Program-made: the position numbers and the translations under genes | Notes under the pieces: generated by a model | The model's input: only the letters and a program-made list of their open reading frames with translations | Databases searched by the model: none | What the model was told of the DNA's origin: nothing | Shown: positions 19,975 to 37,584 of the stretch, piece after piece | How positions within the stretch are numbered: position 1 is the stretch's first letter | How the letters are laid out: each line of letters opens with the position of its first letter | Source of the DNA: Lutibaculum baratangense AMV1 | GTDB lineage: Bacteria; Pseudomonadota; Alphaproteobacteria; Rhizobiales; Tepidamorphaceae | Assembly (NCBI RefSeq): GCF_000496075.1 | Contig: NZ_AWXZ01000016.1 | Coordinates: 1-64,000 of the forward strand | Direction of reading: 5' to 3' | Length of the DNA stretch: 64,000 nucleotides

Positions 19975-20502
19975 ATGACCGAGCCCGCCATCTCCACCCC
20001 CTCTACCGGAACCTCCGAAAAAGCGCCGGCCGAAAGCCGCGCCGCCGATCCCTTCGCCGCGCTGCGGCGTCGCATGGAGCGTCTCGTCGACGACTTCCAG
20101 ACCGGGTTCCCCGCCCTCGGCCGCGACATCTGGGCGAGCGACCTCGCGGCGCCCGTGCGCGAGTGGGTCGGCGGAAACTGGGGCGCGATGGACGTCACCG
20201 AGACGGACCAGGCCTACCGCGTCGCCGTCGAGCTGCCGGGATGCGAGGAGAAGGACATCGATGTCTCCGCCGCGAACGGCATGGTGAGCATCAAGGCCGA
20301 GAAGAAGCAGGAGAAGGCCGACGAGAAGGCGCATGTGACCGAGCGCCACTACGGCTCCTACCAGCGCAGCTTCCGTCTGCCCGAGGGTGTCGACCGGGAG
20401 AAGATCGAGGCGAGCTACAGGAACGGCGTCCTCGAGATCACCCTTCCGAAGACCGAGCAGGCGAAACAGGACGCCCGCAAGATCGAGATCAGGTCGTCCT
20501 GA
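19975..20502 (+). CDS. Hsp20/alpha-crystallin small heat-shock protein
   Basis: This is an ATP-independent holdase chaperone of 175 residues. The alpha-crystallin domain occupies about residues 72-172: MDVTETDQAYRVAVELPG, EEKDIDVSAANGMVSIKAEK, SFRLPEGVDREKIEASYRNG and VLEITLPKTEQ. The N-terminal arm contains FAALRRRMERLVDDF. The start codon follows AGGGAGG. I looked for a CIRCE or ROSE element in the leader and saw none that was convincing. The 3' end overlaps the convergent molybdenum-hydroxylase gene by 14 bp. Confidence 0.93.
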   Translation: MTEPAISTPSTGTSEKAPAESRAADPFAALRRRMERLVDDFQTGFPALGRDIWASDLAAPVREWVGGNWGAMDVTETDQAYRVAVELPGCEEKDIDVSAANGMVSIKAEKKQEKADEKAHVTERHYGSYQRSFRLPEGVDREKIEASYRNGVLEITLPKTEQAKQDARKIEIRSS

Positions 20503-22843
20503 AGGACCCGCGACGGTGCGGCGGGCCGAGACCCTCCGCTCCCTCAGACGTCGCCGCGCGAGCCTCGATCGCCCGCCACACGCGCTCGGGCGTGGCGGGC
20601 ATGTCGAGATGGCGGACGCCGAACTCGGCGAGGGCGTTGCAGACGGCGTTGATGACGGCTGGCAGCGCACCCACCACGCCGGCCTCGCCCACCCCTTTCA
20701 CGCCGAGAGGGTTGTTCGCCGTCGGAACCGGGTGCGACCCGACCGAGAACGAGGGAAAGTCCGCGGCCCTCGGCATGGCGTAGTCCTGGAAGGACGCCGT
20801 CACGAGCTGGCCCGTGCGCGGCTCGTAGACGACGTGCTCCATGAGCGCCTGCCCCGCCCCTTGCGCGATCCCGCCATGGATCTGGCCGTCGACGAGCGTG
20901 TGGTTGAGCACCGTGCCGACATCGTCGACGACGGTGTAGCGGACGATCTCCGTCTCGCCCGTCTCGGGGTCGATCTCCACCTCGCAGACGTGGCAGCCGT
21001 TCGGGAAGGCCGCCCCACTGGCAGAGGAGAAATCCTCCGCCCGAAGGTCGGCGCCGGTCGCCGCCAGCTCCGCGAAACCGACCGCACGATCGGTGCCGGT
21101 GATCTTCGCACGCCCGTCGAGGATCTCGATGTCGTGTGGTCCCGCTTCGAGCATGTCGGCCGCCGTCAGCCGCAGCTTCTCCGCGAAGGCATCCGCCGCA
21201 CGCGACAGGGCGGTGCCGGCCGCAGCGGTCGTGCGCGAACCGAACGTGCCCGTCCCGCGTGACACCTCGGCGGTGTCCCCGCGCACAAAGCGGATCGCGG
21301 CGGGCGCAATGCCCAGACGCTCCGAGAGCAGCCCGCCGAAGGTCGTGGCGTGGCCCTGGCCCGTGTCGCCCGATCCGAGTTCGACGACGAGCGCCCCGTC
21401 GGGGGCGAGGCCGACCGCCGCGAACTCCGGGTTCGGGTTCGCCGCCGGCCCGCCCGCGATCTCTATCGGGTTCGAGAGGCCGATGCCTCGGAGCCTTCCC
21501 CGCTCGGCCGATGCCGCCCGCCGCGCCGCGAAGCCCGCCCAGTCGGCCGCTTGGAGCGCCTCCTCCATGACGGCTGGAAAGTCGCCGCAGTCATAGGTGA
21601 AGACGAGCGGCGTGCGGTAGGGCATCTGCTCCGGCCGCACCAGGTTCCGGCGCCGGATCTCGGCCGCGTCGATGCCCATCTCGAGCGCGGCCAGATCGGC
21701 CATCCGCTCGACCACGTAGGTCGCCTCCGGCCGGCCCGCGCCGCGATAGGGCGCCATGCCCTGCGTGTTCGTGAAGACGCCGTCGACCGTCACCGAGATC
21801 GCGCGGAAGTCGTAGACGCCCGCCACGCCGCCTATGTTGGCGGTCATCGGGTGGGTGCCCATCGTGCCGAGATAGGCGCCGAGATTGGCCTTCGACCGCA
21901 CGTCGAGCGCGGAGAAGCGACCATCGGGATCGAGCGCCAGCGCCGCCTCGACGACCTGCTCGCGCGAGTGGCTGTCTGCCATGAAGGACTCGTTGCGCTG
22001 CTCGCTCCAGCGGACCGGGCGCCCCGTCAGCCGGGCCGCCAGCAGCACGAGCGCATATTCGGGGTACGGGCCGTTCTTCATGCCGAAGGAGCCGCCGGTA
22101 TCCTCCGCCACCACGCGCAGCCGATCCGGTGCGACCCCCAGCACAGGTGCGAGCCCCTCGCCCAGGCGATGCGGCGACTGGGTGCCGAGCCGCAGCGTGT
22201 AGCGCTCGCCATCCGGATCGTAGAGGCCGATGGCGCTGCGAGGCTCGATCGGCGCCGCCGTCACGCGCGTCACGACCAAGCGCTGCCGAACCACGTGGGC
22301 AGCTTCGGCGAAGAGCCGCTCGACCTCCGCCCGGTCCCCCTTCTCCAGGCGGAAGGCCACGTTCCCCGGACAATCCGGCCACACCGGCGGCGCCGCCTCC
22401 TCGGTCGCGGCCTCGGGATCGACCAGCGCGTCCTCCTCCTCGACGTCGAGAAGAACGAGCTCGGCCGCGGCCTCGGCCTGCGTAAGGGTTTCCGCGACGA
22501 CCGCGGCGACCGGGTCGCCGACATAGCGCACACGATCGCGCGTGAGGACGGGATACGGCGGCACGTACATCTCGCCGCCGCCGGGGGCCGGATAGCGGAT
22601 GCGCGGCGCGAAATGGCCGAACGCCTCGGGCAGGTCGTCCGGCGTGAGCACCGCCAGCACGCCGCGCGCCTGCCGGGCCTCCGCGACGTCGAGGCCGACG
22701 ATCCTCCCGCATGCCCAGGCCGACCGCACCACCACGAGAGCGAGTTCGTCGTCGAGCCGCCGATCGCCGGTGTAGCGCCCCATGCCGCGCAAGAGCGGCT
22801 CGTCCTCGAGACGTGTCTCCGGGCGTGCGGCGGGGAGCGACAT
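20489..22843 (-). CDS. Molybdenum hydroxylase large subunit (xanthine dehydrogenase/CoxL family), orphan copy
   Basis: The 784-residue protein has an N-terminal aldehyde oxidase/xanthine dehydrogenase a/b hammerhead domain (about 15-125) and Mo-pterin-binding domains. It carries the motif PYRGAGRPEATYVVERM, the GAGR form of non-CO CoxL-like enzymes, and the conserved active-site Glu in GVKGVGEAGVVGAL. The family hydroxylates aldehydes, purines or N-heterocycles using Mo-MCD cofactor. The start MSLPAARPETR was chosen because AGGAG lies 9 nt upstream; the ATG three codons earlier sits directly on that site. No FeS or FAD subunit adjoins it. It may use the subunits encoded at 36.3-37.6 kb. Confidence 0.88.
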   Translation of the reverse strand: MSLPAARPETRLEDEPLLRGMGRYTGDRRLDDELALVVVRSAWACGRIVGLDVAEARQARGVLAVLTPDDLPEAFGHFAPRIRYPAPGGGEMYVPPYPVLTRDRVRYVGDPVAAVVAETLTQAEAAAELVLLDVEEEDALVDPEAATEEAAPPVWPDCPGNVAFRLEKGDRAEVERLFAEAAHVVRQRLVVTRVTAAPIEPRSAIGLYDPDGERYTLRLGTQSPHRLGEGLAPVLGVAPDRLRVVAEDTGGSFGMKNGPYPEYALVLLAARLTGRPVRWSEQRNESFMADSHSREQVVEAALALDPDGRFSALDVRSKANLGAYLGTMGTHPMTANIGGVAGVYDFRAISVTVDGVFTNTQGMAPYRGAGRPEATYVVERMADLAALEMGIDAAEIRRRNLVRPEQMPYRTPLVFTYDCGDFPAVMEEALQAADWAGFAARRAASAERGRLRGIGLSNPIEIAGGPAANPNPEFAAVGLAPDGALVVELGSGDTGQGHATTFGGLLSERLGIAPAAIRFVRGDTAEVSRGTGTFGSRTTAAAGTALSRAADAFAEKLRLTAADMLEAGPHDIEILDGRAKITGTDRAVGFAELAATGADLRAEDFSSASGAAFPNGCHVCEVEIDPETGETEIVRYTVVDDVGTVLNHTLVDGQIHGGIAQGAGQALMEHVVYEPRTGQLVTASFQDYAMPRAADFPSFSVGSHPVPTANNPLGVKGVGEAGVVGALPAVINAVCNALAEFGVRHLDMPATPERVWRAIEARAATSEGAEGLGPPHRRGSFRTT

Positions 22844-22937
22844 GCAATTCATCTCCTGAAGCTGCGGCGGGCCGACGATCCGTCTACCGCGGGCGCCCGG
22901 CTGGCAAACTCTGTGGGGAAGGAGGAGAACAAACGAA

Positions 22938-22964
22938 GGATGCACCGGCAGGGCCGGTGCATCC
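22938..22964 (-). terminator. Hairpin between the TctC-like and molybdenum-subunit genes
   Basis: A perfect 12-bp stem with an AGG loop is followed on the minus strand by TTCGTTTGTTC. It lies 32 nt past the stop of the solute-binding-protein gene and about 95 nt before the molybdenum subunit gene, so it could terminate or attenuate read-through between them. Confidence 0.7.
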
Positions 22965-22995
22965 ACATTCTAGATGAAACGCCCGACAGCCGCGA

Positions 22996-24075
22996 TCAGT
23001 CGCCGCTGCCCTCGCCGGGATTCTGCGTCTCCTCGGCGTCGGAGGCGTCCATGGCGCTGCGCGTCGCCTCGATCAGCTCCGGCGAGGCAGACACGATCTC
23101 CTCGTTGATCGTCTCGACCTCCTCGCCGGTGGCAGGGATGATGATGGCGCCGCGCCGCTCGGCGTCTTCCAGGAAGGCCGGATCCGTCACCATCTCCTGG
23201 AACGCTTCGCGCAGTGCCGCGATGACGTTCTCCGGCGTGCCGGGAACGGCCATCATCGGGCGGCCGATCGGCGCGGCCGACGAGGCGAAGCGAAGGATCC
23301 TCTGCGCCTCCTCGTCGTCCGTCAGCTCCTGAAGCAGGGGAACCTCGGGGATGTCGGGATCGCGCTCGAGGCCCGCCTGCATGATGATGCGCAGGTCGCC
23401 GGAATCCATATCCGCCTGATCATTGGCCGCGAAGGAGGCCCAGTTCTGCGAGAACATGTCGACTTCGCCGCGGATCGTGGCGAGCTTGGAGGCGGCGGAG
23501 CCCTTGTAGCCGCAGATCAGGCGCAGATCGTAGCCCAGCAGGTTCTTCAGAAGAGCCGGCATCTGGGCGCTGCGCGCGGCCTTGCCGGTGCACGCCACGA
23601 CGACCTGAGTGTCCTTCATCTCCTCGGCGGAGTCGATGGGGGCGGTCGGGCCGATCGCGAAGGCCGAGTTGGCCGGGGCGAAACGGCCGATATAGCGGAA
23701 CTTCGCCGCGTCCCAGTCCGCCTGCTCCGGCGTGAGAAGCTGGATGTGGGCGAGCGTGTCGGGAAGGATCGCGACGGTGAGACCGTCCGGCTCCGTGTTG
23801 TTGTGGAAGTACGCGGCCGCCCGCCGCCCTCCACCACCCGGCATGTGCTGCACGATCACGTTCGGCTCGCCCGGCAGGAACTGGCCGAAATGCGCCGCGG
23901 CGAGCTGGGCGTACAGGTCGTATGAACCGCCCGGCGGATGGCCGATCAGAATGGTCAGCGTGTTGCCGGAATAGAGGTCTTCGACGCTCTGATCCTGCGC
24001 CACGCCCGGCGACGCGGCTGTCAGCGCCGCCGCCGTCATCGCGGCGCCGGCGAGAATGGACTTCCAGGCCCTCAT
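22996..24075 (-). CDS. Tripartite tricarboxylate transporter substrate-binding protein (TctC/Bug family)
   Basis: The 359-residue precursor has a signal peptide (MRAWKSILAGAAMTAAALTAASPGVAQ). The TctC/Bug fold follows, with the ligand-loop motif LIGHPPGGSYDLYAQLAAAH and the second-lobe segment ICGYKGSAASKLATIRGEVD. The C-terminal tail is unusually acidic and Glu-rich. Bug proteins deliver carboxylates to TctAB membrane components; here those are the fusion protein encoded divergently about 180 nt away. The intergenic region holds a promoter and motif shared with two other sites in the island. The likely ligand is an organic acid that the island degrades. Confidence 0.9.
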   Translation of the reverse strand: MRAWKSILAGAAMTAAALTAASPGVAQDQSVEDLYSGNTLTILIGHPPGGSYDLYAQLAAAHFGQFLPGEPNVIVQHMPGGGGRRAAAYFHNNTEPDGLTVAILPDTLAHIQLLTPEQADWDAAKFRYIGRFAPANSAFAIGPTAPIDSAEEMKDTQVVVACTGKAARSAQMPALLKNLLGYDLRLICGYKGSAASKLATIRGEVDMFSQNWASFAANDQADMDSGDLRIIMQAGLERDPDIPEVPLLQELTDDEEAQRILRFASSAAPIGRPMMAVPGTPENVIAALREAFQEMVTDPAFLEDAERRGAIIIPATGEEVETINEEIVSASPELIEATRSAMDASDAEETQNPGEGSGD

Positions 24076-24155
24076 GTCATTCTTCCCCTTGTGGTGCTTC
24101 GCGGCTCTGTTGCGGCCGCTGTCTCCCACGCGCGCCGGCGACCTCGCGGCCCACG

Positions 24156-24184
24156 TTGTCAAACATACTGTCATACATTAATAC
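24156..24184 (+). promoter_or_regulatory. Promoter with embedded GntR-type operator, upstream of tctAB fusion
   Basis: On the plus strand TTGTCA (24156-24161), 17 nt, then TAATAC (24179-24184) form a good sigma-70 promoter. The spacer holds CATACTGTCATAC (24164-24176), the reverse complement of GTATGACAGTATG. The element is nearly identical to the one at 32790 and similar to that at 28985. Its position between the -35 and -10 boxes suits repression. The likely binder is the FCD-type GntR regulator encoded in the same island; this is inference. Confidence 0.72.
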
Positions 24185-24256
24185 ATTATTCAAACGACGA
24201 CGACGCAGCGACAACAAGCACGCGCCGCACCGACGGCTCGCTCCAGGGGAAACGGA

Positions 24257-26251
24257 ATGCTCGCAGAGGCGGCCGTTCAGGCTCTCGGCATCATCATGGA
24301 GCCCTCGCGGCTCGTCTTCGTGATGCTGGGGACGGTGCTCGGGCTGATGATCGGGGTCATCCCCGGCATCGGGGGACTCGTCGGCCTCGCCCTTCTCCTG
24401 CCCTTCACCTTCGCGATGGACCCTTACACGGCCCTCGCCTTCCTCGTGGGGGTGCAGTCGGTCACCACGACGTCCGACACGATTCCCGCAGTCCTCTTCG
24501 GCGTGCCCGGCACGGTGGGCTCGGCGGCGACCGTGCTCGACGGACATCCGATGGCGAAGCGCGGCGAGGCGGGGCGGGCTTACGGGGCGGCCTTCACGGC
24601 GTCGGTCCTGGGCGGGCTCTTCGGCGCCCTGCTGCTCGCTTTGTCCGTGCCGATCCTGCGGCCGTTCGTGCTCGCCGTCGGCACGCCGGAGCTGCTAGCC
24701 GTGTGCCTCCTCGGCCTCACGCTCATCGTCTCGCTCAGCCAGGGCGCCCTGTTCAAGGGTCTCGCGGCGGCAGCCGTCGGCCTTCTCCTGTCGACGGTCG
24801 GTGACGAGCCGCAGACCGGCATCCAGCGCTGGACCTTCGACACGTTCTACCTGTGGGACGGCATCTCGCTCGTGCCTCTCGCCCTCGGCCTGTTCGCCGT
24901 GCCGGAGATCATCGACCTCGCGGCCTCGAAGCGGTCGATCTCGCAGACCGACACGCGCACCGACCGCTGGCAACAGCTCGAAGGCGCGAAAGACGTCCTG
25001 CGAAACTGGTGGCTCGTCATCCGCTGCTCCTCGATCGGCAGCATCCTCGGCTCGATCCCCGGCCTCGGCTCCTCCATCATCGACTGGGTGGCCTACGGCT
25101 ACGCGGCGCGGAGCGTGAAGGGGGCATCGGAGACGTTCGGGAAAGGCGACGTGCGCGGCGTCATCGCCTCGGAGAGCGCCAACAACGCCAAGGAGGGCGG
25201 GGCGCTCGTCCCGACGCTCGCCTTCGGCGTCCCGGGCTCGGCCTCGATGGCGCTCCTCCTCGGCGCCTTCCTCATTCACGGCATCGCACCTGGGCCGAAC
25301 ATGCTCGGCAAGGATCTCGACGTCACCTTCACGCTGATCTGGACGGTCGCCCTCGCGAACATCCTCGGGGCCGGGATCTGCTTCGCCTTCGCGGGCCAGT
25401 TCGCGAAGATCGCGTCGATCAGGGCCGGCCTGCTCGTACCGCTCATCTTCGGCCTCATGCTGATCGGCGCCTATCAGGGGGCGCAGTCCTTCCCCGACCT
25501 CCTGGTGCTCGGGCTCTTCGGCTCCATCGGCTGGGCCATGAAGCGCCTGAGCTGGCCCCGCCCGCCACTGATCCTCGCCTTCGTCCTCGGCGGGCTGATC
25601 GAGAACTACCTGTTCATCTCGCAGCTCCGCTACGGATACGCCTGGATGCTTCAGCCCGTTCCGTTCGTGATCCTGTGCCTGATCGCGATCGCGCTCGGCA
25701 AGCCGCTCTACGACCGCTTCCGCCGGCCGAGGCTCGCCGAGGGCACGGTGGATCCGCTGCGCCCCCACGCGACCGGCGGGCTCCTTGCGGCCGACATCGT
25801 CATGTGGGCGTGTGCCGCGTTCGTGTTCCTCTATGCGCTCGTCTCCTCGAACAGGTGGGACATCGAAGCGCGGATGATGCCGCAGGCCGTGGCGGTGGCG
25901 GGCCTGATCGCGGTCGGGCTCTTCGCCCTCTTCCGCTACCTCAGGCGGATCCCGCCGATTGCCGACGACCCGGCGGCGCCCGGCGCGCAGCTGATCAAGG
26001 AAGGGCTGTGGCTCGCCGGGCTGATCGCCGGCGTCGCGCTCGTCGGGATGATCCCGGCCATCGTGATCTACGCGTTCGCCTACATGGTCGTGGCCGGCAG
26101 GACGGCGCTCTGGCGCGCGCTTCTCATCACCGTCCTGTTCGGGGCCGGCCTCTACTTCCTGTTCCACATGACGCTGCACATTCCCTGGCCGCACTCGGTC
26201 CTGGGCGATCTCGTGCCGCAGCTGCGCCGAATGACCGGCCGTCTCATCTGA
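24257..26251 (+). CDS. Tripartite tricarboxylate transporter permease, TctA-TctB fusion
   Basis: This 664-residue inner-membrane protein joins the large and small permease components of the TTT family. Residues 1 to about 495 are TctA: GVIPGIGGLVGLALLLPFTF with the GIPG-type loop, and the second repeat SIPGLGSSIIDWVAYG with AKEGGALVPTLAFGVPGS. From about 510 to 655 the chain matches TctB, a four-helix domain starting LLAADIVMWACAAFVFLYAL. Separate genes are the norm, so fusion at this order and length is notable. It works with the TctC-like protein encoded divergently. The leader from the predicted promoter is about 66 nt. The ThDP enzyme gene follows after 41 nt, probably in one operon. Confidence 0.9.
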   Translation: MLAEAAVQALGIIMEPSRLVFVMLGTVLGLMIGVIPGIGGLVGLALLLPFTFAMDPYTALAFLVGVQSVTTTSDTIPAVLFGVPGTVGSAATVLDGHPMAKRGEAGRAYGAAFTASVLGGLFGALLLALSVPILRPFVLAVGTPELLAVCLLGLTLIVSLSQGALFKGLAAAAVGLLLSTVGDEPQTGIQRWTFDTFYLWDGISLVPLALGLFAVPEIIDLAASKRSISQTDTRTDRWQQLEGAKDVLRNWWLVIRCSSIGSILGSIPGLGSSIIDWVAYGYAARSVKGASETFGKGDVRGVIASESANNAKEGGALVPTLAFGVPGSASMALLLGAFLIHGIAPGPNMLGKDLDVTFTLIWTVALANILGAGICFAFAGQFAKIASIRAGLLVPLIFGLMLIGAYQGAQSFPDLLVLGLFGSIGWAMKRLSWPRPPLILAFVLGGLIENYLFISQLRYGYAWMLQPVPFVILCLIAIALGKPLYDRFRRPRLAEGTVDPLRPHATGGLLAADIVMWACAAFVFLYALVSSNRWDIEARMMPQAVAVAGLIAVGLFALFRYLRRIPPIADDPAAPGAQLIKEGLWLAGLIAGVALVGMIPAIVIYAFAYMVVAGRTALWRALLITVLFGAGLYFLFHMTLHIPWPHSVLGDLVPQLRRMTGRLI

Positions 26252-26292
26252 GACGCGCCGCAAGACACGACACGTCGAGAGGGAGCACCACC

Positions 26293-28065: not shown

Positions 28066-28080
28066 GCCGGTCACACCCCT

Positions 28081-28110
28081 CGCACCGCTGGAGTGGGCTC
28101 CAGCGGTGCG
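28081..28110. terminator. Bidirectional hairpin terminator
   Basis: A perfect 13-bp stem with a TGGG loop sits in the 54-nt gap between convergent stop codons of the ThDP enzyme and the alpha/beta hydrolase. Symmetry and position suggest termination in both directions, though neither side has a long T run. Confidence 0.75.
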
Positions 28111-28119
28111 GGGGGCATC

Positions 28120-28935
28120 TCAGTGGGCGGAAAGGAGCGCCTCTATCTCCGAGGCGATCTCCTGCGGCACCTCGAGCGGCGTGAAATGCCGCGCCCGTTC
28201 GATCACCCGCATCCGGGCGTTCGGGATCGCATCCTTCAGCGCCTGCGACATCGCCACCGGCGTCGCGTAATCCTCCTCGCCCACGACGATGCGGCAGGGA
28301 AAACCGAACGCCGGAAGCGCGGAGCGCTTGTCCACCGCGCCGAGCATCCGGCAGGTCTCGGCATAGGGCTGCAGGTCGTTCTTCACGAAGACCCCGATCG
28401 CCGCCTCCACGATCTCGGGATTGGCCTCACGGAACGAGTCGCTGAACCAGCGGGTCTTCTGGAAGCCGACGAGGGCGCTCATGCCCCCGTCCAGCGCCTT
28501 CTGCGCCCGTTCCTCCCAGGCACCTCGTGCATCCTCACCGTACCAGGCGGTCGTGTCGAAGAGCCCGAGACCCGCGACCCGTGCCGAATGGCGCTCGGCG
28601 AAGGCGAGCGCGACGCAGCCTCCCATCGAGGCCCCGCAAACGACCGCCGTCTCCCAGCCGACATGGTCGAGGAGATCGGCCAGATCGTCGGCGAAGAGAT
28701 CGATCGTGTACGGACCGGCGGGCTTGTCCGACGCGCCGTGGCCGCGGCAATCATAGACGAGGACGTCCGCATGACCGGCGAGCAAGGGCGTCACCCGATC
28801 CCAGAACGCGCCGTTCATCGCCAGGGAGTGAACAAGAGCGACGCGGCCGCTTCCCGTGCCCTTCACCACCCGATAGGCCAGCCGCGCACGGTCGCGCGCG
28901 GTGACCAAGCCGGACTGCGTCTGCTCGTTCGCCAT
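28120..28935 (-). CDS. Alpha/beta hydrolase, 3-oxoadipate enol-lactonase-like
   Basis: This 271-residue cytosolic hydrolase has a complete triad. The nucleophile elbow is VVCGASMGGCVALAF, the acid is in IVVGEEDYATPV, and the His is in RARHFTPLEVPQEI. The oxyanion region VALVHSLAMNGAFWD is PcaD-like. PcaD-family proteins open lactone rings in aromatic catabolism, but relatives include other esterases, C-C hydrolases and amidases, so the exact reaction is unknown. AAGGAAGAG precedes the ATG. It is divergent from the AbrB-type gene across the third operator-like region, which ties it to the island regulon. Confidence 0.85.
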   Translation of the reverse strand: MANEQTQSGLVTARDRARLAYRVVKGTGSGRVALVHSLAMNGAFWDRVTPLLAGHADVLVYDCRGHGASDKPAGPYTIDLFADDLADLLDHVGWETAVVCGASMGGCVALAFAERHSARVAGLGLFDTTAWYGEDARGAWEERAQKALDGGMSALVGFQKTRWFSDSFREANPEIVEAAIGVFVKNDLQPYAETCRMLGAVDKRSALPAFGFPCRIVVGEEDYATPVAMSQALKDAIPNARMRVIERARHFTPLEVPQEIASEIEALLSAH

Positions 28936-28984: not shown

Positions 28985-29020
28985 TTGTCATCGACCCCGA
29001 TATGATCGTATTACAGTACG
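28985..29020 (+). promoter_or_regulatory. Promoter with GntR-type operator, upstream of AbrB-type gene
   Basis: TTGTCA (28985-28990) and TATTAC (29009-29014) are 18 nt apart on the plus strand. GTATTACAGTACG (29008-29020) overlaps the -10 box and matches GTATGACAGTATG of the other two island sites at 11 of 13 positions. It is inverted relative to them. This is the weakest of the three matches, but it lies in the same kind of divergent gap. Confidence 0.6.
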
Positions 29021-29110: not shown

Positions 29111-30208
29111 ATGAAGGCTGTGCGAAAACGGCTCCTGCGCGCCTACGAGCCATTTCGCCCCGACGCGTTCCCCTACCCGAACTTCTTCCTCGCCATCGCG
29201 ATCGGCCTCGTCGGCGCGATCGTCTTCGTCTACTTCTCGCTGCCCCTGCCCTGGATGCTCGGGCCTCTCGCGGCATGTCTCCTCGCTTCGCTCGCCGGGG
29301 TGCCCGTGAAGGCTCCGTCGCGGGTGCGGCCGCCGATGACGATGTTGGTGGGCGTGCTGCTCGGCGCGGGATTCACGCCACAGATGGTGTCGGACGTCCC
29401 GCACTGGCTGCCGAGCATCCTCGGGCTCGTGCTGTTCCTCGCCGTCGCGGCCGGGCTGTGCGTCGTCTACCTCCACAAGGTGGCGGGCTTCGACCTGCCG
29501 ACCTCCTACTTCGCGGGGATGCCGGGCGGACTCGTGGAGATGGTGACACTCGGCCAGGCCAAGGGCGGGGACACGCGGGTGATCGCGCTCATCCACTCCA
29601 GCCGCATCATGATGATCGTGTTCACCCTGCCCTTCATCCTCCAGCTGGTGACGGGGCAGACGATGACGGCGCGGCCGCAGAGCGGCCAGTCGGTCTTCGA
29701 CGCGCCGTGGACCGTCGAGCTCTGGCTCGTCGCGACGGGCATCGCGGGCCTCTATCTCGGGCGCCTCCTGCGCCTGCCCGCCCCCGCGCTCATGGGCCCC
29801 ATGCTCGCGAGCGCGGTCGTGCATCTCACGGGCCTGACCGAGTTCACGCCGCCATACGAGCTCGTCGCGCTGGCGCAGCTCGTGCTGGGCACCGTCCTCG
29901 GCTGCCGCTTCGCCGGGGCGGATGCCCGCTACGTCATGCGGATCCTGTCGATCTCGGTCGGCTCCGCGGTGATCCTCATCGTCGTCGGGCTCGTCTTCGC
30001 CCTCGGCCTCAGCCGGCTGATCGGCATCCCCGTGCTGGACCTTCTGCTCGCCTATTCGCCCGGCGGCCTGACGGAGACGAGCCTCATCGCGCTCGCCCTG
30101 CACGTGGAGGTCGCCTTCGTCGCGACCCACCACGTCTTCCGGGTCTTCCTCGTGATGTCGACGGCGGGTCTGGTTTTCAGGCTCGTCGAACGGCTTCGCG
30201 GCAGCTGA
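29111..30208 (+). CDS. AbrB family polytopic membrane protein
   Basis: This 365-residue hydrophobic protein has the two-repeat AbrB membrane domain often annotated as an ammonia-monooxygenase-like or AbrB-type regulator. Repeat signatures are PLPWMLGPLAACLLASLAGV with YFAGMPGGLVEMVTLGQAKG, and LPAPALMGPMLASAVVHLTG with LLAYSPGGLTETSLIALALH. About ten transmembrane segments are likely. It is a membrane protein unrelated to DNA-binding AbrB, and a transport role is plausible but untested. I preferred the ATG at MKAVRKRLLRAYEP; an upstream GTG adds 12 residues. Its genomic setting suggests export or import of a pathway compound. Confidence 0.82.
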   Translation: MKAVRKRLLRAYEPFRPDAFPYPNFFLAIAIGLVGAIVFVYFSLPLPWMLGPLAACLLASLAGVPVKAPSRVRPPMTMLVGVLLGAGFTPQMVSDVPHWLPSILGLVLFLAVAAGLCVVYLHKVAGFDLPTSYFAGMPGGLVEMVTLGQAKGGDTRVIALIHSSRIMMIVFTLPFILQLVTGQTMTARPQSGQSVFDAPWTVELWLVATGIAGLYLGRLLRLPAPALMGPMLASAVVHLTGLTEFTPPYELVALAQLVLGTVLGCRFAGADARYVMRILSISVGSAVILIVVGLVFALGLSRLIGIPVLDLLLAYSPGGLTETSLIALALHVEVAFVATHHVFRVFLVMSTAGLVFRLVERLRGS

Positions 30209-30218
30209 GACGCCGATA

Positions 30219-31067: not shown

Positions 31068-32699
31068 TCACCCCTTCTCAACCGCGCGGACCGGCGTCTC
31101 CGGCTTCATGCCACCCTTGCGCCTGGCATAAGTGTCGCTGCCGTTGTCACGCCAGTCCCCCCTGACCGCAGCCTCGGCGAAGCGCGTCCAGGTCTCGCTC
31201 CAGTCGCCGAGCGAGTAGCCGTGCCAGGGCGCCTGGGGCGAGAGATCCGGCAAGCCGATCTCCTCCCACAACTCCTTCGCGCGCGTCATGTAGGGCTCGG
31301 CCGGCAGGGCGAGCGGCGGCATCGGGGCCTTCAGCGTCGCGTCGATCATGAGCGTGCCTTCGGCGGCGCCACCCCCGGACTTCGGGCCGTGGCCGCCGGA
31401 CCGGTAGGGCGTGACGTGCACGTCCGTCATCATGTTGGCGCGGTAGGCGAGCGACCAGAAGACCGCGTCGGCATTCCGCGCGTCGATGTCGTCGGAGACG
31501 GCCACGACGATCTTGCCGCACTGCGCCTGCAGCGTCGCGGCTCCCTGCAGGCCCCGCCAGACCTCCGTCGGCGGCGTTCCCTTCTCGAACTGCAGGAAGA
31601 TGACCTTGCGGATGTTCGTCAGCGGCTCGTGCATCACGACGTTCCTGATGCCCTTGATGGCGAGCACGCTCTTCAGATGCGTGAGGAACAGGGGCTCGTA
31701 GGCCACGCGCTTGAGGACGCTCGATTCCGACGGCGTCACCTGGCTGATGATCGAGACGAAGACGGGCGTCGACTTGCGGGTGATCGCGGTCACCTGCATC
31801 GACATGTTGAAGTCCTCGAGCGCGACGTGCCCGTGGCTCTCGCCGAAGGGACCTTCCGGCTCGAGGAGCTCCGTGTCGATCAGCCCCTCGATCACGATCT
31901 CGGCGTCGGCGGGCACCTCGAGATCGATGGTCCTGCACTTCACGATGCGCACGGGCTGCCCCATGAGGCCGCCGGCGACCGACAGCTCGTCCTGGTCGAT
32001 CGGCAGCTTCTGCGGCCCTGTGAAGAGCACGGCCGGCGCGCAGCCGATGACGATGGCGCAGGGCATCTTCTCGCCTCGCTCCTTGTACTTGAGCCAGTGG
32101 AGATAGCCGCCGGCGCCGCTGAGCCGGCTCGCCATCCGCACGCCCAGCCGGTCCTGCGCCTTCAGGGCTCCGCGATAGGTGCCCATGTTGCGGATGCGGC
32201 TGTCGGGATCCCGGGTGACGCAGAGCGTGGCGGTGAGATAGGGGGCGCTGTCGAAGCCGGGCGTCGATATCGGCACCGGCAGCGTGGCGAGGCCCCCTCC
32301 CGGACGCGTGAGGTCGTCGCCGGTCAGCACGACCTCCTGGCAAGGCGCCGCGTCGACCATCTCCGGCTCCACGGGCGTCTCCATCGCCCGCACCCACACG
32401 TCCCCGATCTCGGCCACCTCGACCCCCAGGCCGGCGGCGTAGATCTCGGCCGATGCCGCGAGAACCCCGGTGGCGACGGGGATCTCGTAGCTCTCGCCCT
32501 TCGCACCGCGCACGTCCGTGAAGAGGAAGCCCCGGCGCTGCTCCTCGCGCAGGCCGCCCTGGAACTGCCAGCGCGACAGGGGGTGCAACTCGCTGTCCTT
32601 GTCGATCGGCCGATCGATCCGCGTCAGCAGCCCCCTCGCCTCGAGCCGCTCCAGATGCTCCTGCAGATCCGTCGGGGCCAGCGTCTGCCGCACGTCCAT
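31068..32699 (-). CDS. UbiD family decarboxylase
   Basis: The 543-residue protein belongs to the prenylated-FMN-dependent UbiD (de)carboxylases. Family landmarks are NMGTYRGALKAQDRLGVRM, CAIVIGCAPAVLFTGPQKLP, the active-site EPEGPFGESHGHVALED with catalytic Glu residues, and SSVLKRVAYEPLFLTHLK. Members act on aromatic, heteroaromatic or alpha,beta-unsaturated acids. No UbiX flavin prenyltransferase gene lies in the window, so the cofactor must come from elsewhere. GAGGAGG lies about 6 nt before the ATG. It is divergent from the molybdenum large subunit gene across an operator-bearing gap. It is not ubiquinone-pathway UbiD by context. Confidence 0.9.
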   Translation of the reverse strand: MDVRQTLAPTDLQEHLERLEARGLLTRIDRPIDKDSELHPLSRWQFQGGLREEQRRGFLFTDVRGAKGESYEIPVATGVLAASAEIYAAGLGVEVAEIGDVWVRAMETPVEPEMVDAAPCQEVVLTGDDLTRPGGGLATLPVPISTPGFDSAPYLTATLCVTRDPDSRIRNMGTYRGALKAQDRLGVRMASRLSGAGGYLHWLKYKERGEKMPCAIVIGCAPAVLFTGPQKLPIDQDELSVAGGLMGQPVRIVKCRTIDLEVPADAEIVIEGLIDTELLEPEGPFGESHGHVALEDFNMSMQVTAITRKSTPVFVSIISQVTPSESSVLKRVAYEPLFLTHLKSVLAIKGIRNVVMHEPLTNIRKVIFLQFEKGTPPTEVWRGLQGAATLQAQCGKIVVAVSDDIDARNADAVFWSLAYRANMMTDVHVTPYRSGGHGPKSGGGAAEGTLMIDATLKAPMPPLALPAEPYMTRAKELWEEIGLPDLSPQAPWHGYSLGDWSETWTRFAEAAVRGDWRDNGSDTYARRKGGMKPETPVRAVEKG

Positions 32700-32789
32700 C
32701 ACTCTCCTCCTCGAATGCAGGAGCGCAGGGCGCCTTAACGCCTGGCGCCCTTTTCTTCTCGGCCGCCATTTCGAGGGCCGGCCGTAGCC

Positions 32790-32819
32790 TTGTCAAAGCA
32801 TACTGTCATACATTAATAC
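32790..32819 (+). promoter_or_regulatory. Promoter with embedded GntR-type operator, upstream of the Mo hydroxylase operon
   Basis: TTGTCA (32790-32795), 18 nt and TAATAC (32814-32819) form a plus-strand promoter with CATACTGTCATAC at 32799-32811 in the spacer. Over 32 positions it matches the element at 24156 except for one inserted G. Its predicted transcription start near 32826 rules out the TTG at 32821 as a start codon for the downstream gene. Confidence 0.75.
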
Positions 32820-32880
32820 ATTGGACAACGTGACAGGACACTCCGTCGGCACCGGCGGAGCAGGATGGTGCATTGACCCG

Positions 32881-35328
32881 ATGAAGACGTCTCCGGCAGC
32901 CGCGCCGGCAGCCTCCTCGCCCGCCTCGCGGCCGGCAGCCGAGGGGGCCGCGCCGGCGGACCTGAAGATCATGACGGAGAAGCTCTTCCGCCACATCGGC
33001 AAGCCGGTCGAGCGCAAGGAGGATGCCCGCCTCGTCACCGGCAAGGGCCGCTTCAGCGACGACTTCCGCCTCGCCGGACAAGCCCATGCAGCGATCGTGC
33101 GCTCGCCGCACCCGCATGCGCGCATTCGCGGCATCGAGACGGCCGAGGCCCTCTCGAGCCCGGGCGTTCTGCTGGTCCTGACCGGTCGCGACTGCCTCGA
33201 CGACGGACTGGAGCCCATCCCCCACAACCCGGTCCCATCGACGAAGTACGACATGAAGCTGACCGCGCCCGGCGGCGGCGTGCCGTTCATCGGCCCGCAC
33301 CACCTGCTGCCGGACGACAAGGTGCGCCATGTCGGCGAGGCGGTGGCGATCGTGGTCGCCGAAACCCAGGCTCAGGCCCTCGACGGCGCCGAGCGCGTCC
33401 TCGTCGACTACGAGATCCTGCCGCACGTGATTCACTCGGAGGATGCGATCGCGGCGGGGGCGCCCGCCGTCTGGGACGAGGTGCCGGAGAACGCCTTCGT
33501 CGACACACGCTTCGGCGACTGGAAGGGCACGGAGCGTGCCTTCGAGCAGGCGACGCACGTCGTCTCGGCGAAGTTTCACGTCAACCGCGTGACGGCGGTG
33601 CCGCTCGAGCCGCGTTCGGCGCTGGCGAGCTTCGACGTCGAGACCGGCCGCTACGTGCTCTATGCCGGCAGCGGCGGTGCGGTGCGCCAGAAGCGCGAGC
33701 TTTCGAGCGTGCTGGGGATCGACCCGAGCCGGCTGAGGGTGCTGTCCTACGATGTCGGCGGAAATTTCGGCGCGAGAAACAGGGTCTATGTCGAGTTCGG
33801 CCTCGTGCTCTGGGCGTCCCAGAAGCTCGGCCGGCCGGTGAAGTACACCGCCACAAGGTCCGAGGCCTTCCTGACGGACTACCAGGGCCGCGACCTCGTC
33901 ACGACGGTGGAGCTGGCATTGGACGAGGACGGGCGGTTCCTCGCCCTGCGCGCCGACAACATTTCGAATGTCGGGGCGCGCTGCGTGTCGCTGTCGCCGC
34001 TGAGCAAGGGCTCCGGGCTGATCACCGGCTCCTACGACATTCCGGTCGCGGCGCTGAGGGCGCGCGCGGTCTTCACGAACACGATGTGCACGCAGGCCTA
34101 TCGCAGCTCTGGACGCCCGGAAGTGACCTACGCGATCGAGCGCCTGATCGAGATCGCGGCGCGCCGGCTGGGCTTCGATCCGCTCGAATTGAGGCTCCGC
34201 AACCTCGTGCCGCCGGAGGCAATGCCCTACCGCAACGCGGTCGGCTCGATCTACGATAGCGGCGAGTACGAGAAGAACATGGACCGCGCGCTCGTGATCG
34301 CCGACTGGGCCGGTTTCGAGGCGCGGCGGCAGGCGGCGGCGGAGCGTGGCAAGCTCCTCGGGCGCGGCTTCGCGAACTACGTGGAGTCCTCGATCGGCAC
34401 GCCGAAGGAACGGGCGGAGATCACGGTGAAGCCGGATGGCACGATCGAGGTCGTGATCGGCACGCAGCCGAGCGGCCAGGGCCACGAGACGAGCTTCGCG
34501 CAGGTGGTCGCCGAGATGCTCGACGCGCCGGTGGAGAACGTGACGATCGTGCTCGGCGACACGGATGTCGTCAGCGTCGGCGGCGGCTCGCATTCCGGAC
34601 GCTCGATGCGGCACGCGGGAACGGTCATGGCGATGGCCTCCGCCGACCTCGTCGCCGAGGCGCGACGCCGGGCGGCCGAGCTCTTCGATGCGCCGGAGGA
34701 GGATGTTTCGTTCGAGGGCGGCCGTCTCGTCTTGCCCGGCACGAACCACGCCGTCGACCTGTTCGAGCTCGCGCGCCTGACCGAGCGGGACCACGGACCC
34801 CTTTTCGCCGCGCGCACGAACGAGATGCACACGCCGGTCTTCCCGAACGGCGCGGCCGCCTGCGAGGTCGAGATCGACCCGAAGACGGGCCTCGTCGAGA
34901 TCACCCGCTACGCGAGCGTCGACGACGTCGGGCGCTGCATCAACCCGCTCATCGTCCACGGCCAGACCCATGGCGGCATCGCGCAAGGGGTCGGCCAGGC
35001 GATGTGGGAGGAGTGCCATGTCGAGCCGTCGAGCGGCCAGCCCGTCTCCGGCTCCTTCATGGATTACGGCATGCCGCGCTCGGACAACATGCCCTCCTTC
35101 ATCTGCGAGATCGCCGAGGTGATCTCGCCGACAAACCCGCTCGGCATCAAGGCGGGCGGCGAAGGGGGCACGACGCCCGCGCTGGCCGTCGTCACGAACG
35201 CCGTGATCGACGCGCTGCGCGACACGGGCGTCGAGGACCTGCCGATGCCGCTCACCCCGCTCACCGTGTGGAAGGCGATCCGCCACGGCGCCGGCCACAC
35301 AGACGAAGACACGAGGACGACTTCATGA
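32881..35328 (+). CDS. Molybdenum hydroxylase large subunit (CoxL/xanthine dehydrogenase family)
   Basis: The 815-residue catalytic subunit has an a/b hammerhead domain from about residue 35 ([20 protein letters not shown]) and Mo-pterin-binding domains after it. The expected active-site loop reads [17 protein letters not shown], where relatives have GAGR. The conserved Glu is in [17 protein letters not shown]. No CoxL AYxCSFR motif is present, so it is not a CO dehydrogenase. Start choice: ATG at MKTSPAAAP, or MTEKLFRH 30 codons later; an earlier TTG lies upstream of the predicted transcript start. Its stop overlaps the next start (ATGA). The full operon order is large subunit, binding-protein-like, FeS, FAD. 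Confidence 0.9.
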
Positions 35329-36271
35329 CCACCCCGTCCACCCTCACGGACGTACGCGTCATCGCCTTTCCCGGTGCGCCGAACCTGCCGACCTTCGCGG
35401 CGATCGAGGAGGGCTACTTCGCGGCCGAAGGCCTGAACGTCACGGTCGAGACGACCCCGAGCTCCGTCTACCAGGCCGAGAAGTTCGCCGCCGGCGAGTT
35501 CGACGTCGCCTTCACCGCCTTCGACAACGTGGTCGCCTACACCGAGGGTCAGGGTGCGGTGAAGCTCGCGGAGGATCCGGGCTTCAAGGTCATCATGGGC
35601 GCGACGCAGCTCGAGCTCGCCTTCGTCGTCGCGCCGGACGTGAAGAGCTACACGGACCTGAAGGGTCGCTCGATCGCACTCGACGCGCTGGCGACGGGGT
35701 TCGCCTTCGTGCTCTACGACATGCTGGAGAGGGGCGGCCTGCAGGAGGGCGACTACGAGTTCGCCGCCGTCGGCGCGACGCCGCAGCGCTGGCAGTCGGT
35801 GAAGGAGGGCGAGCACGCCGGCACGCTGACGATCGAGCCCTTCACGAGCATCGCGCAGAAGAACGGCTTCCACGTTCTCGACACCTCGACGAAGCTCTAC
35901 GATTCCTACCAGGGCGGCATCGTCGCGGCGCGTCAGGCATGGGCGAAGGCGAACCCGGAGACGGTGAAGGCCTTCATCCGCGGCTATCTCAGGGGTCTCG
36001 ACTGGACCTTCGAGCCCGGCAACCGGCAGGCAGCCGAGGCGCTGCTCGTCGAGAGGATGCCGCAGATCCAGCCAACCGCCGTGAAGCCCGTGATGGAGAG
36101 CCTGCTCTCGCCCCGCTCGGGCCTGACCCCCCACGCGGACGTCCTGCGCGACGGCATGGCGAGGGTGCTCGAGCTGCGCTCCCGCTACGGCTCCGACCGT
36201 CGGCTCGAGGACGTCGAGAAGTACCTCGACCTGTCGTTCCACCGGAAGGTCCTCGGCCGGGAGGCGCCGGC

Positions 36272-36275
<4 letters not shown>
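35325..36275 (+). CDS. NMT1/THI5-like solute-binding-fold protein lacking a signal peptide
   Basis: The 316-residue protein has the SsuA/NMT1/THI5-type periplasmic-binding fold: [59 protein letters not shown] and [19 protein letters not shown]. It starts directly at [12 protein letters not shown] with no hydrophobic leader, and no ABC permease or ATPase lies near it. It overlaps its neighbours by 4 nt on each side (ATGA), so it is made with the Mo hydroxylase subunits. Cytosolic members of this fold include enzymes (yeast THI5, dihydroxyphthalate decarboxylase-like proteins), so a catalytic, chaperone or ligand-sensing role is more likely than transport. Confidence 0.8.
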
Positions 36276-36757
<482 letters not shown>

Positions 36758-36768
36758 GGGGCAAGGCG

Positions 36769-37584
36769 ATGTACGAACTCAGATATCGCCGCCCCGCCGA
36801 TCTCGCGGAAGCCGCAAGCCTCTTCGAGGCCGCCGAGGACCCGGCTTATATCTCGGGCGGCCACACATTGCTGCCGACGCTGAAGGGTCGCCTCGCCGCC
36901 CCCGATGCGCTGATCGACCTCAGGCGCCTGCCGGAGCTGAAGGGGATCCGCCGCGAAGGCGATCGCCTCGTCGTCGGCGCAGGCGAGGTCCACCGCGATG
37001 TCGCAGCCTCGCCCGACGTGCGCGAGGCGCTGCCGGCACTCGCCGGGCTCGCCGGCTCGATCGGCGACGTCCACGTGCGCAATCACGGCACGATCGGCGG
37101 CTCGGTCGCGAACAATGATCCCGCCGCCGACTACCCCGCCGCGGTCCTCGGGCTCGGCGCGGTCGTGCGCACGAACCGGCGCGAAATCGCCGCCGACGAC
37201 TACTTCCAGGGCCTGTTCACCACCGCCCTCGAGGAGGGCGAGATCGTCGTCGCGCTTTCGTTCCCCACCGGGGCCGAGTGCGGCTATGCGAAGTTCCGCA
37301 ATCCCGCCTCCCGATACGCCATGGCGGCCGTGTTCGTGGCGCGCTTTGCCGACGCGGTTCGGGTCGCAGTGACGGGGGCGGGCAATGACGGCGTGTTCCG
37401 CTGGACGGCGGCCGAAAAGGCGCTCGCCACGAGCTTCAGCCCCGAGGCGCTCGCGGACCTCTCCGTCGCCGAGGCCGACATGATCGACGACCTTCACGGC
37501 TCCGCAGAATACCGGAGGCACCTCGTTTCGGTGATCGCCGAGCGGGCGGTGGCGAACATGGGCCGCGCGGTCGTCACGCCGTGA
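36769..37584 (+). CDS. Molybdenum hydroxylase FAD-binding medium subunit (CoxM-like)
   Basis: The 271-residue subunit begins MYELRYRRPADLAEAASLF. It carries FAD-binding motifs GGHTLLPTLKGRLAAPDALI and TIGGSVANNDPAADYP. A CO_deh_flav_C domain follows from about residue 165. It accepts electrons from the FeS subunit and passes them to an external acceptor. It completes the large/FeS/FAD trio. It is the last gene of the operon, and I see no obvious terminator before the GNAT/C39 gene 135 nt downstream. Confidence 0.93.
   Translation: MYELRYRRPADLAEAASLFEAAEDPAYISGGHTLLPTLKGRLAAPDALIDLRRLPELKGIRREGDRLVVGAGEVHRDVAASPDVREALPALAGLAGSIGDVHVRNHGTIGGSVANNDPAADYPAAVLGLGAVVRTNRREIAADDYFQGLFTTALEEGEIVVALSFPTGAECGYAKFRNPASRYAMAAVFVARFADAVRVAVTGAGNDGVFRWTAAEKALATSFSPEALADLSVAEADMIDDLHGSAEYRRHLVSVIAERAVANMGRAVVTP

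What the first reader, a model, noticed from the sequence alone, without database searches (positions are those of the whole stretch)
20489..37584. Candidate new catabolic island combining TTT uptake, UbiD, molybdenum hydroxylase, ThDP enzyme and lactonase
Seen: 12 genes in this stretch fit uptake and degradation of an organic acid, including a TctC/TctAB transporter, a three-subunit Mo hydroxylase with an extra large subunit, a UbiD-family decarboxylase, a ThDP-dependent enzyme, a PcaD-like hydrolase, an AbrB-type membrane protein and a GntR regulator. Known: UbiD enzymes act on aromatic or unsaturated acids, Mo hydroxylases hydroxylate aldehydes or N-heterocycles, and TTT systems import carboxylates. 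The set matches no pathway I can name; there is no CoA ligase or ring-cleavage dioxygenase. Inference: a (hetero)aromatic carboxylate route with hydroxylation, decarboxylation and hydrolytic opening.
Basis: partly seen in the sequence, partly recalled or inferred. Interest (0 to 1): 0.78.

Follow-up and report, generated by a model that had tools for sequence, protein, structure and literature searches.

The report
Modular decarboxylase–hydroxylase catabolic regulon
Twelve neighbouring bacterial genes look like one jointly controlled pathway that probably imports a ring-shaped organic acid, strips its carboxyl group, adds oxygen with a molybdenum enzyme and opens the ring by hydrolysis, by a route I could not match to a described one; the actual food molecule is still unknown.

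Summary
The twelve genes are real and conserved. Comparison resolves them into a core (UbiD decarboxylase, Mo-hydroxylase large subunit MoL2, FeS and FAD subunits, a solute-binding-protein-like protein without signal peptide, an alpha/beta hydrolase, GntR regulator) plus swappable modules. The hydrolase occurs in 17 of 17 cluster genomes, and in a family sample in exactly the 3 of 198 genomes that have the SBP-like gene. A second Mo subunit (MoL1) and a ThDP enzyme are all-or-none: ThDP occurs in 10 of 10 genomes with MoL1, 0 of 6 without. An ABC importer with an isochorismatase-fold amidase is found in other clusters instead, or in addition. An identical 24-bp motif lies in two divergent promoters (UbiD|MoL2, TctC|TctAB) and, at up to 3 mismatches, nowhere else in the 4.3-Mb genome; it recurs in relatives (30 further sites at up to 6 mismatches; reversed control 0). 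One regulon is likely.

UbiD is nearest HmfF among solved structures but lacks its furandicarboxylate residues; none of the twelve is a CoA ligase or ring-cleavage dioxygenase. Best reading: a CoA-independent decarboxylate–hydroxylate–hydrolyse route for a (hetero)aromatic carboxylate, substrate unknown. Most unusual: the apparently cytoplasmic SBP-like protein inside the Mo-hydroxylase operon.

The parts
20489..22843 (-). MoL1: second Mo-hydroxylase large subunit (PYRGAGRP, KGVGEAG motifs)
   Evidence: Pfam MoCoBD_1/2, Ald_Xan_dh_C; motif; co-varies with ThDP
22938..22964 (-). 12-bp-stem terminator-like hairpin between TctC and MoL1
   Evidence: z -3.9; 4 terminator-like sites found in the region against 4.8 expected, so the scan alone means little
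22996..24075 (-). TctC solute receptor of TTT transporter
   Evidence: PF03401
24164..24187 (+). conserved operator-like motif, copy 1 (TctC|TctAB divergent promoter)
   Evidence: 0 mismatches; only 2 in genome at up to 3 mismatches; recurs in relatives
24257..26251 (+). TctA-TctB fusion (TTT membrane subunits)
   Evidence: PF01970, PF07331
26293..28065 (+). ThDP-dependent enzyme, benzoylformate-decarboxylase-like
   Evidence: TPP_enzyme N/M/C; PDB best hits BFD
28076..28115 (.). strong hairpin between the convergent ThDP and hydrolase genes
   Evidence: z -5.3
28120..28935 (-). alpha/beta hydrolase, PcaD-like (ABH)
   Evidence: TIGR02427 196 bits, cut-off 256; 2xua; in 17 of 17 cluster genomes
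28997..29020 (-). degenerate candidate operator, ABH|AbrB promoter (9 mismatches)
   Evidence: the closest relative has a 6-mismatch site between the same two genes
29111..30208 (+). AbrB-family membrane protein
   Evidence: PF05145, TIGR03082
30219..30911 (-). GntR/FCD regulator
   Evidence: PF00392, PF07729
31068..32699 (-). UbiD-family decarboxylase
   Evidence: PF01977/20695/20696; nearest solved HmfF
32799..32822 (+). conserved operator-like motif, copy 2 (UbiD|MoL2 divergent promoter)
32881..35328 (+). MoL2: Mo-hydroxylase large subunit ([17 protein letters not shown] motifs); start could be 32821 or 32971
35325..36275 (+). NMT1/SsuA-fold solute-binding-like protein without signal peptide, overlapping MoL2 by 4 nt
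36272..36757 (+). 2Fe-2S subunit of the Mo hydroxylase
36769..37584 (+). FAD subunit of the Mo hydroxylase

Best explanation
The stretch is one catabolic regulon for a (hetero)aromatic carboxylate, controlled by the GntR/FCD protein through a conserved operator (binding inferred). The TTT transporter imports the acid. The core works in the order UbiD (prFMN-dependent decarboxylation, R-COOH to R-H), MoL2 with the FeS and FAD subunits (water-derived hydroxylation of the freed ring carbon), alpha/beta hydrolase (hydrolysis of the lactone- or lactam-like tautomer, opening the ring), without CoA activation or a dioxygenase. The prFMN cofactor must come from the only UbiX found in the genome, in a second, parallel UbiD cluster. 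The embedded solute-binding-like protein most likely binds or hands over a pathway compound in the cytoplasm next to MoL2. MoL1 and ThDP are a separable pair: ThDP decarboxylates a 2-oxo acid to an aldehyde and MoL1, borrowing the FeS/FAD subunits, oxidises it to the acid. Shown here on sequence: gene families, synteny, the module pattern, the motif, absence of a signal peptide. Inferred: reaction order, substrate class, the role of each protein.
For: Core conserved: of 24 genome loci with UbiD at >=70% identity, 18 hold MoL2 and the same 18 the SBP-like gene; GntR in 17, ABH in 14 within the stretch, but ABH in 17 of 17 whole genomes searched, one each, 54-71% identical. Base rate: in 198 genomes of one family ABH (E<=1e-50) and the SBP-like gene (E<=1e-80) occur in the same 3 and in no other (one is the seed; nominal chance 5e-5 without it, ignoring kinship). 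The two non-seed hits lie in the full cluster (L141, L142). Module pair: ThDP in 10/10 genomes with MoL1, 0/6 without (1.2e-4 if independent), both states among rhizobial and roseobacter-type loci; MoL1-type genes sit next to or one gene from ThDP relatives, with no UbiD, FeS or FAD hit, in three more genomes (L148-L150). Regulon: identical 24-mer in two promoters, 2 in the genome, 0 control; 32 sites in 0.70 Mb of window and relatives, 0 for the reversed pattern, at UbiD|MoL2, MoL1|MoL2, TctAB|TctC, AbrB|ABH and an ABC-receptor promoter. A CSHase-like amidase in related clusters hints at a ring nitrogen. One UbiX in the genome.
Against: No substrate, product or expression data. L046, L050 and L068 have UbiD, MoL2 and SBP-like genes but no FeS/FAD hit in the locus. 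6 of 24 close UbiD loci lack MoL2; L035, L038 and L058 are cut by a contig end but L044, L045 and L047 are not. The ABH is not always near: none in the stretch of L029, L030, L032 and the plasmids L106, L110, L111; in L032's genome it lies over 100 kb from ThDP. Reaction order could be reversed (hydroxylate first), and the two Mo subunits could be successive hydroxylases. BFD Ser26 is Ala in the ThDP enzyme. Loci share ancestry, so counts are not independent. The motif was derived from the window and then sought in relatives; L036, L043, L046, L050, L057, L068 lack it; GntR binding is not shown.
Confidence: 0.57

Rival explanations
1. Hydroxylation first: a pyridine carboxylate (nicotinate- or isonicotinate-like) is hydroxylated twice beside the ring nitrogen by MoL2 and MoL1, then UbiD decarboxylates the activated dihydroxy acid, and ABH plus an amidase open the cyclic imide tautomer to an amic acid and a diacid.
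For: Two distinct Mo large subunits with one FeS/FAD set among the twelve; Mo hydroxylases of N-heterocycles are among the nearest solved relatives (6-hydroxypseudooxynicotine dehydrogenase, quinoline 2-oxidoreductase, beside CO dehydrogenases); amidase of the CSHase group in sister clusters.
Against: Clusters without MoL1 keep the core (L026-L028, L031, L036, L040); MoL1-type genes pair with ThDP relatives even without UbiD nearby; no Mo-hydroxylase reference was placed in a tree; the window's genome has no amidase of this type.
Confidence: 0.2
2. A variant furoate/furandicarboxylate (Hmf) pathway.
For: UbiD nearest to HmfF among solved structures; Hmf uses UbiD, a Mo trio and hydrolases (PMC12064950, passages).
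Against: His296/Arg304 of HmfF (6h6v) are Ser/Tyr here; Ser in 86 of 86 and Tyr in 81 of 86 aligned rows (the window protein is in twice); none of the twelve is a CoA synthetase (the rest of the genome was not searched for one).
Confidence: 0.07
3. Two or more independent catabolic units that happen to adjoin (TTT+ThDP+MoL1; UbiD+MoL2) and do not act on one compound.
For: MoL1+ThDP-type pairs occur without the UbiD core nearby; the UbiD core occurs without MoL1+ThDP.
Against: The same rare motif in both promoter regions here and in relatives; repeated co-localisation in different gene orders.
Confidence: 0.14

Closest known systems
Hmf furan-2-carboxylate / FDCA degradation cluster
   Same: UbiD + UbiX, three-subunit Mo hydroxylase, hydrolase, transporter (passages of PMC12064950)
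   Different: Hmf activates furoate as CoA thioester; here no CoA synthetase among the twelve, FDCA-recognition residues absent in UbiD, second Mo subunit, ThDP enzyme and SBP-like protein added
Nicotinate (Nic) and nicotine lower pathways (recalled)
   Same: Mo hydroxylase; alpha/beta hydrolase; in sister clusters an isochorismatase-fold amidase
   Different: no ring-cleavage dioxygenase or monooxygenase among the twelve genes; UbiD added
Pyrrole-2-carboxylate decarboxylase PA0254/HudA
   Same: UbiD family on 5-ring heteroaromatic acids; Ser at the substrate-contact position was tolerated there (N318S; passages of PMC7976604)
   Different: apparently another UbiD branch: 62 bits against 156 for HmfF; no tree built
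Cytoplasmic enzymes with solute-binding-protein fold (Thi5, DszB)
   Same: fold (Thi5 from rank 9, DszB rank 41); no signal peptide
   Different: no Cys at all in the window protein, so no DszB-type Cys; sequence closer to transport receptors
Second UbiD cluster of the same genome (C13, L143)
   Same: Mo trio, CoxG, alpha/beta hydrolase, UbiX, UbiD, TctC/TctB/TctA
   Different: UbiD 57%, MoL 31% identity; no ThDP or SBP-like hit in the stretch; NIPSNAP and Amidohydro_2 genes added

Membership tests
UbiD decarboxylase family | UbiD domain above gathering score | tested here: met
   PF01977 173.8 bits, cut-off 23.3
UbiD decarboxylase family | Arg and Glu of the catalytic Glu-Arg-Glu network present (positions recalled) | tested here: met
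   GTYR and EGPFGE motifs aligned with HmfF
HmfF FDCA decarboxylase | His296 and Arg304 (6h6v numbering, recalled; PMC7976604 passages name H297 as key to furan specificity) | tested here: not met
   Ser and Tyr in the window
PcaD 3-oxoadipate enol-lactonase | score above NCBIfam equivalog cut-off | tested here: not met
   196.4 against 255.85 bits
Benzoylformate decarboxylase | Ser26, Glu47, His70, His281 (recalled) | tested here: inconclusive
   Glu47 and His70 kept, Ser26 is Ala, His281 outside the aligned parts
Xanthine-oxidase-family Mo hydroxylase | MoCo-binding domains, FeS and FAD subunits, active-site Glu motif | tested here: met
Aerobic CO dehydrogenase form I | AYxCSFR motif with active-site Cys (recalled) | tested here: not met
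   AYRSSGRP in MoL2, PYRGAGRP in MoL1; scores below NCBIfam cut-offs
Tripartite tricarboxylate transporter | TctA, TctB and TctC | tested here: met
   PF01970, PF07331, PF03401 above gathering
DszB desulfinase | catalytic Cys (recalled) | tested here: not met
   window protein has no Cys
Thi5 HMP-P synthase | active-site His and Cys-rich motif (recalled) | tested here: inconclusive
   no Cys in the window protein; His not compared by alignment
FCD/FadR-type GntR regulator | GntR wHTH + FCD domains | tested here: met
FCD/FadR-type GntR regulator | binds the 24-bp motif | not testable with these tools
   motif holds GT-N3-AC, the recalled FadR-type core; no binding data

The most novel reading that the evidence does not exclude
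A new CoA-independent route: a 5-membered heteroaromatic acid (pyrrole-2-carboxylate-like or furoate-like) is decarboxylated to the free heteroarene, hydroxylated at the vacated carbon to the pyrrolone/butenolide, and hydrolysed, with a periplasmic binding protein that lost its signal peptide recruited as a cytoplasmic substrate-holding partner of a Mo hydroxylase, keeping the volatile intermediate in hand.
Probability: 0.2. Interest if true: 0.82.

Novelty: new variant of a known kind. Interest (0 to 1): 0.6.

Why it matters
It gives an uncharacterised group of UbiD enzymes, which in this sample all carry Ser at the position that helps fix furan specificity in HmfF (86 of 86 rows), a defined partner set, a regulator with a predicted operator (hence a reporter for finding the inducer), and named isolates with related clusters (Sinorhizobium fredii NGR234, Shinella fusca, Rhodobacteraceae). 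It also raises a testable question: why a solute-binding protein without signal peptide should be locked into a Mo-hydroxylase operon.

Tried and rejected
Considered and rejected: FDCA/furoate-CoA route (signature residues missing, no CoA ligase among the twelve); plain PcaD lactonase (below cut-off); the SBP-like protein as an ordinary ABC receptor (no signal peptide in the clade: N-terminal hydrophobicity index 0.37-1.63 in 22 proteins against 2.15 and 2.33 in the secreted relatives L105, L107; but the same crude index gives low values for some TctC and ABC receptors as called, e.g. 1.04 for the window's TctC, so the point rests mainly on reading the N-terminal sequences), or as DszB-like (no Cys). 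I thought of 4,5-dihydroxyphthalate decarboxylase as an SBP-fold enzyme from memory; nothing here tested it.

Led nowhere: paper searches 29 (0 hits), 30, 31, 32, 46, 71, 72, 84, 85: judged by listings and starts of abstracts, plus passages of PMC7976604 and PMC12064950, none describes this cluster (open-access PMC only). tRNA scan (none); sigma-70 scan (1 site, expected 1.1). Plasmid records without annotation: L106, L108 and L111 were read by tblastn, L109 was not used.

Dropped or limited: one search kept 80 of 138 relatives. L043's genome was not held, so it is not in the 10/10 versus 0/6 count. Of 22 SBP-like homologues L034 was left out of the structure alignment (21 used); L042 and L068 were called from an internal codon, and L034 has a longer N-terminus without a clear hydrophobic stretch. 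Only 9 MoL1 rows (over 650 residues, L041 and L042 missing) were in the motif check. Of the ThDP relatives L004-L024 (21 loci), 3 showed a Mo subunit in the short flanks; these three and five others were then fetched with wide flanks, so '3 of 8' is not a random sample. Checked late: against my crude gene caller 25 of the 32 motif sites are free, 5 touch the end of a called gene, and 2 (L031, L041) lie inside over-long called frames although upstream of the MoL2 match.
Full report
What is there. Twelve genes fill 20489-37584. From left: MoL1, TctC (both -), TctA-TctB fusion, ThDP enzyme (both +), alpha/beta hydrolase ABH (-), AbrB membrane protein (+), GntR regulator and UbiD (both -), then MoL2, SBP-like protein, 2Fe-2S and FAD subunits (+). 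Families are assigned by Pfam and NCBIfam; in the rows shown no island protein reaches an NCBIfam equivalog cut-off, so precise names would be wrong. None of the twelve is a CoA ligase or ring-cleavage dioxygenase. The neighbours on either side look unrelated (alcohol dehydrogenase, Hsp20; GNAT-like protein).

A conserved cluster. One scan with UbiD returned the best 80 of 138 relatives in genome contigs. Of 24 loci with UbiD at 70% or more, 18 carry MoL2 (>=59%) and the same 18 the SBP-like gene (>=50%); 17 carry the GntR, 14 the ABH, 10 MoL1, 10 ThDP, 8 TctAB. Of the six without MoL2, three are cut by a contig end (L035, L038, L058) and three are not (L044, L045, L047). Of the 56 loci with UbiD below 70%, 10 carry MoL2, 3 the SBP-like gene, 3 ABH, 4 TctAB, none MoL1, ThDP or the GntR at these thresholds. 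The SBP-like gene occurs in none of the 80 loci without MoL2. Gene order is shuffled between lineages while the set stays. Plasmids of Neorhizobium petrolearium, S. fredii NGR234 and S. meliloti LMB1 hold the set with TTT, ThDP and MoL1, without ABH in the stretch; R. jaguaris holds it with ABC importer, amidase and ABH.

Whole-genome tests. ABH was sought in 17 cluster genomes, the window's included: one match in each, 54-71% identical to the window's apart from itself. In most it lies beside the cluster; in L029's and L030's genomes on the same contig within about 15 kb of ThDP, in L032's over 100 kb away. Base rate: 198 genomes of one family gave ABH at E<=1e-50 in 3, and these are the same 3 that have the SBP-like gene. 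One of them is the seed; for the other two the nominal chance of agreement is 1 in 19,306, ignoring kinship. Both non-seed genomes hold the cluster (L141, L142: UbiX, MoL1, MoL2, SBP-like, FeS, FAD, GntR, AbrB, UbiD). In a second family only the seed of 297 has the SBP-like gene. At most about a dozen first-look candidates were scored per genome. The cluster is rare and scattered.

Modules. ThDP was sought in the whole genomes behind 17 loci, of which 16 were held. It is present in all 10 with MoL1 (L025, L029, L030, L032-L034, L037, L039, L041, L042) and in none of the 6 without (L026-L028, L031, L036, L040; E<=1e-100); MoL1 was checked genome-wide at E<=1e-190. If independent, the chance is 1.2e-4; both states occur among rhizobial and among roseobacter-type loci. 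L040 has TctC/TctAB without MoL1 or ThDP, so the pair does not simply follow the transporter. Away from the UbiD cluster, MoL1-type genes (46-52% to MoL1, 42-43% to MoL2) sit next to a ThDP relative (L148, L150) or one gene away (L149), with no UbiD, FeS or FAD hit in the 14-19 kb fetched; L150 also has the amidase (57%). These three were noticed among 21 ThDP relatives. An isochorismatase-fold amidase with a NitT/TauT-like ABC importer accompanies the core in L026, L027, L028 and L031. The amidase (E<=1e-20) is in 6 of 17 genomes: those four and L025's at 69-100%, L039's at 38%; the window's genome has none. L025's contig, the closest relative found, holds both modules. The amidase is nearest to N-carbamoylsarcosine amidohydrolase and related entries; I recall, without having checked, that 4l07 and 3uao are maleamate amidases. 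Some isochorismatase-fold enzymes have gamma-lactamase activity (start of abstract of PMC5353710).

One regulon. The 24-mer CATACTGTCATACATTAATACATT stands without a mismatch at 24164 and 32799, in two of the island's three divergent promoter regions, TctC|TctAB and UbiD|MoL2. With up to 3 mismatches there are 2 in the window (0 in 100 shuffles) and the same 2 in the 4.3-Mb genome (0 for the reversed pattern). In 29 sequences, window included (695,577 bases), there are 32 sites at up to 6 mismatches against 0 for the reversed pattern. None lies inside a match to a cluster gene; they fall at UbiD|MoL2, MoL1|MoL2, TctAB|TctC, AbrB|ABH, and beside an ABC receptor gene. Against a crude gene caller 25 are free, 5 touch a gene end and 2 lie in over-long frames. 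Two pairs of sites overlap (L106, L110). Twenty-three of the 29 sequences have a site; L036, L043, L046, L050, L057 and L068 have none. The window's ABH|AbrB gap holds only a degenerate candidate, 9 mismatches. GntR as the binder is inferred from its usual presence and from the GT-N3-AC core (recalled for FadR-type regulators).

The SBP-like protein. It overlaps MoL2 by 4 nt and begins almost directly with the mature domain; the homologues look alike (22 proteins, two called from an internal codon, L034 with a longer N-terminus). Relatives at 38-40% in pA81 and Rhizobium AB2/73 carry a signal peptide and lie near ring-degradation genes. The model is confident (pLDDT 93.9, 21 of 22 homologues); its best solved matches are transport receptors, with Thi5 from rank 9 and DszB at rank 41. 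It has no Cys; some homologues have 1-3. In the printed sequences most invariant polar residues (Ser47, Gln50, Asp67-Asn68, Asp120, Gln196) recur in the secreted relatives, which argues for retained ligand binding; this was read by eye.

Mechanism. UbiD keeps the Arg and Glu motifs but has Ser and Tyr where HmfF has His296 and Arg304; Ser in 86 of 86 and Tyr in 81 of 86 rows (all are relatives of the window's UbiD by selection, and the window's own is in twice). The PA0254 paper says that the HmfF His is key to furan specificity, that the matching PA0254 residue is Asn318, and that N318S kept considerable activity on pyrrole-2-carboxylate with more conversion of furan- and thiophene-2-carboxylate (passages); so Ser there is compatible with heteroaromatic acids. 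MoL2 carries AYRSSGRP in 25 of 26 rows and K[AS]GGEG[GP]TT in 25 of 26; MoL1 PYRGAGRP in 9 of 9. ThDP keeps BFD Glu47 and His70 but not Ser26. I therefore favour decarboxylate, hydroxylate, hydrolyse, with ThDP+MoL1 as a 2-oxo-acid to aldehyde to acid module and the amidase as an amide-to-acid step. Whether these modules feed the core or follow it is not decided; the amidase's nearest relatives suggest a linear amide, hence perhaps a step after ring opening.

Cofactor supply. One UbiX was found in the genome, in a second cluster at C13 with its own Mo trio, CoxG, hydrolase, UbiD (57%) and TTT. Two parallel clusters with one logic in one genome support a general UbiD-Mo-hydrolase type of pathway.

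Novelty. Searches of open-access papers, judged by listings and two papers' passages, gave no description of the cluster; subscription papers were not searchable. The kind (catabolic operon) is known; this combination, the motif and the embedded SBP-like protein appear new. Change on checking: confidence in the best reading went from 0.55 to 0.57 and the rival of unrelated units from 0.15 to 0.14, because searches show the hydrolase to follow the core genome by genome.

Noticed in passing
L143 (G000 contig C13:160000-179900), 5009-17384: Second, parallel cluster: NIPSNAP, FAD, FeS, MoL, Amidohydro_2, CoxG, alpha/beta hydrolase, UbiX, UbiD, TctC, TctB, TctA, TIGR02444-like gene; it holds the only UbiX found in the genome.
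   Followed up: partly
L108 8093-10974: In Rhizobium jaguaris the UbiD gene matches in two pieces about 2.5 kb apart, as if interrupted by an insert.
   Followed up: no
L143 16833-17384, L110 7288-7785, cluster c12: A gene annotated TIGR02444 family in L110 recurs near UbiX/UbiD clusters (c12: 19 loci), also in the parallel cluster (44%); function unknown.
   Followed up: no
window 22938-22964 and 28076-28115: Two strong hairpins between genes; the first may cut MoL1 off from TctC transcription.
   Followed up: partly
MoL1 matches in G301, G303, G304, G308, G310 and one in G000 C18: The tool counts in-frame stops in several MoL1 matches although the open frames span about the whole gene; unexplained, perhaps end effects.
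   Followed up: no
L089, L104: MAGs titled Klebsiella pneumoniae and Bordetella parapertussis carry loci like those of environmental betaproteobacteria; the species labels look doubtful.
   Followed up: no
L046 1960-6007 (and the like in L050): UbiD-MoL2-SBP beside a ring-hydroxylating Rieske oxygenase pair and a cupin protein (for L046), without FeS/FAD hits.
   Followed up: partly
L144 (G000 C18:72193-74499): Another MoL1-type large subunit (46-47%) elsewhere in the window's genome; a weak FAD-subunit-like hit lies about 7 kb away.
   Followed up: no
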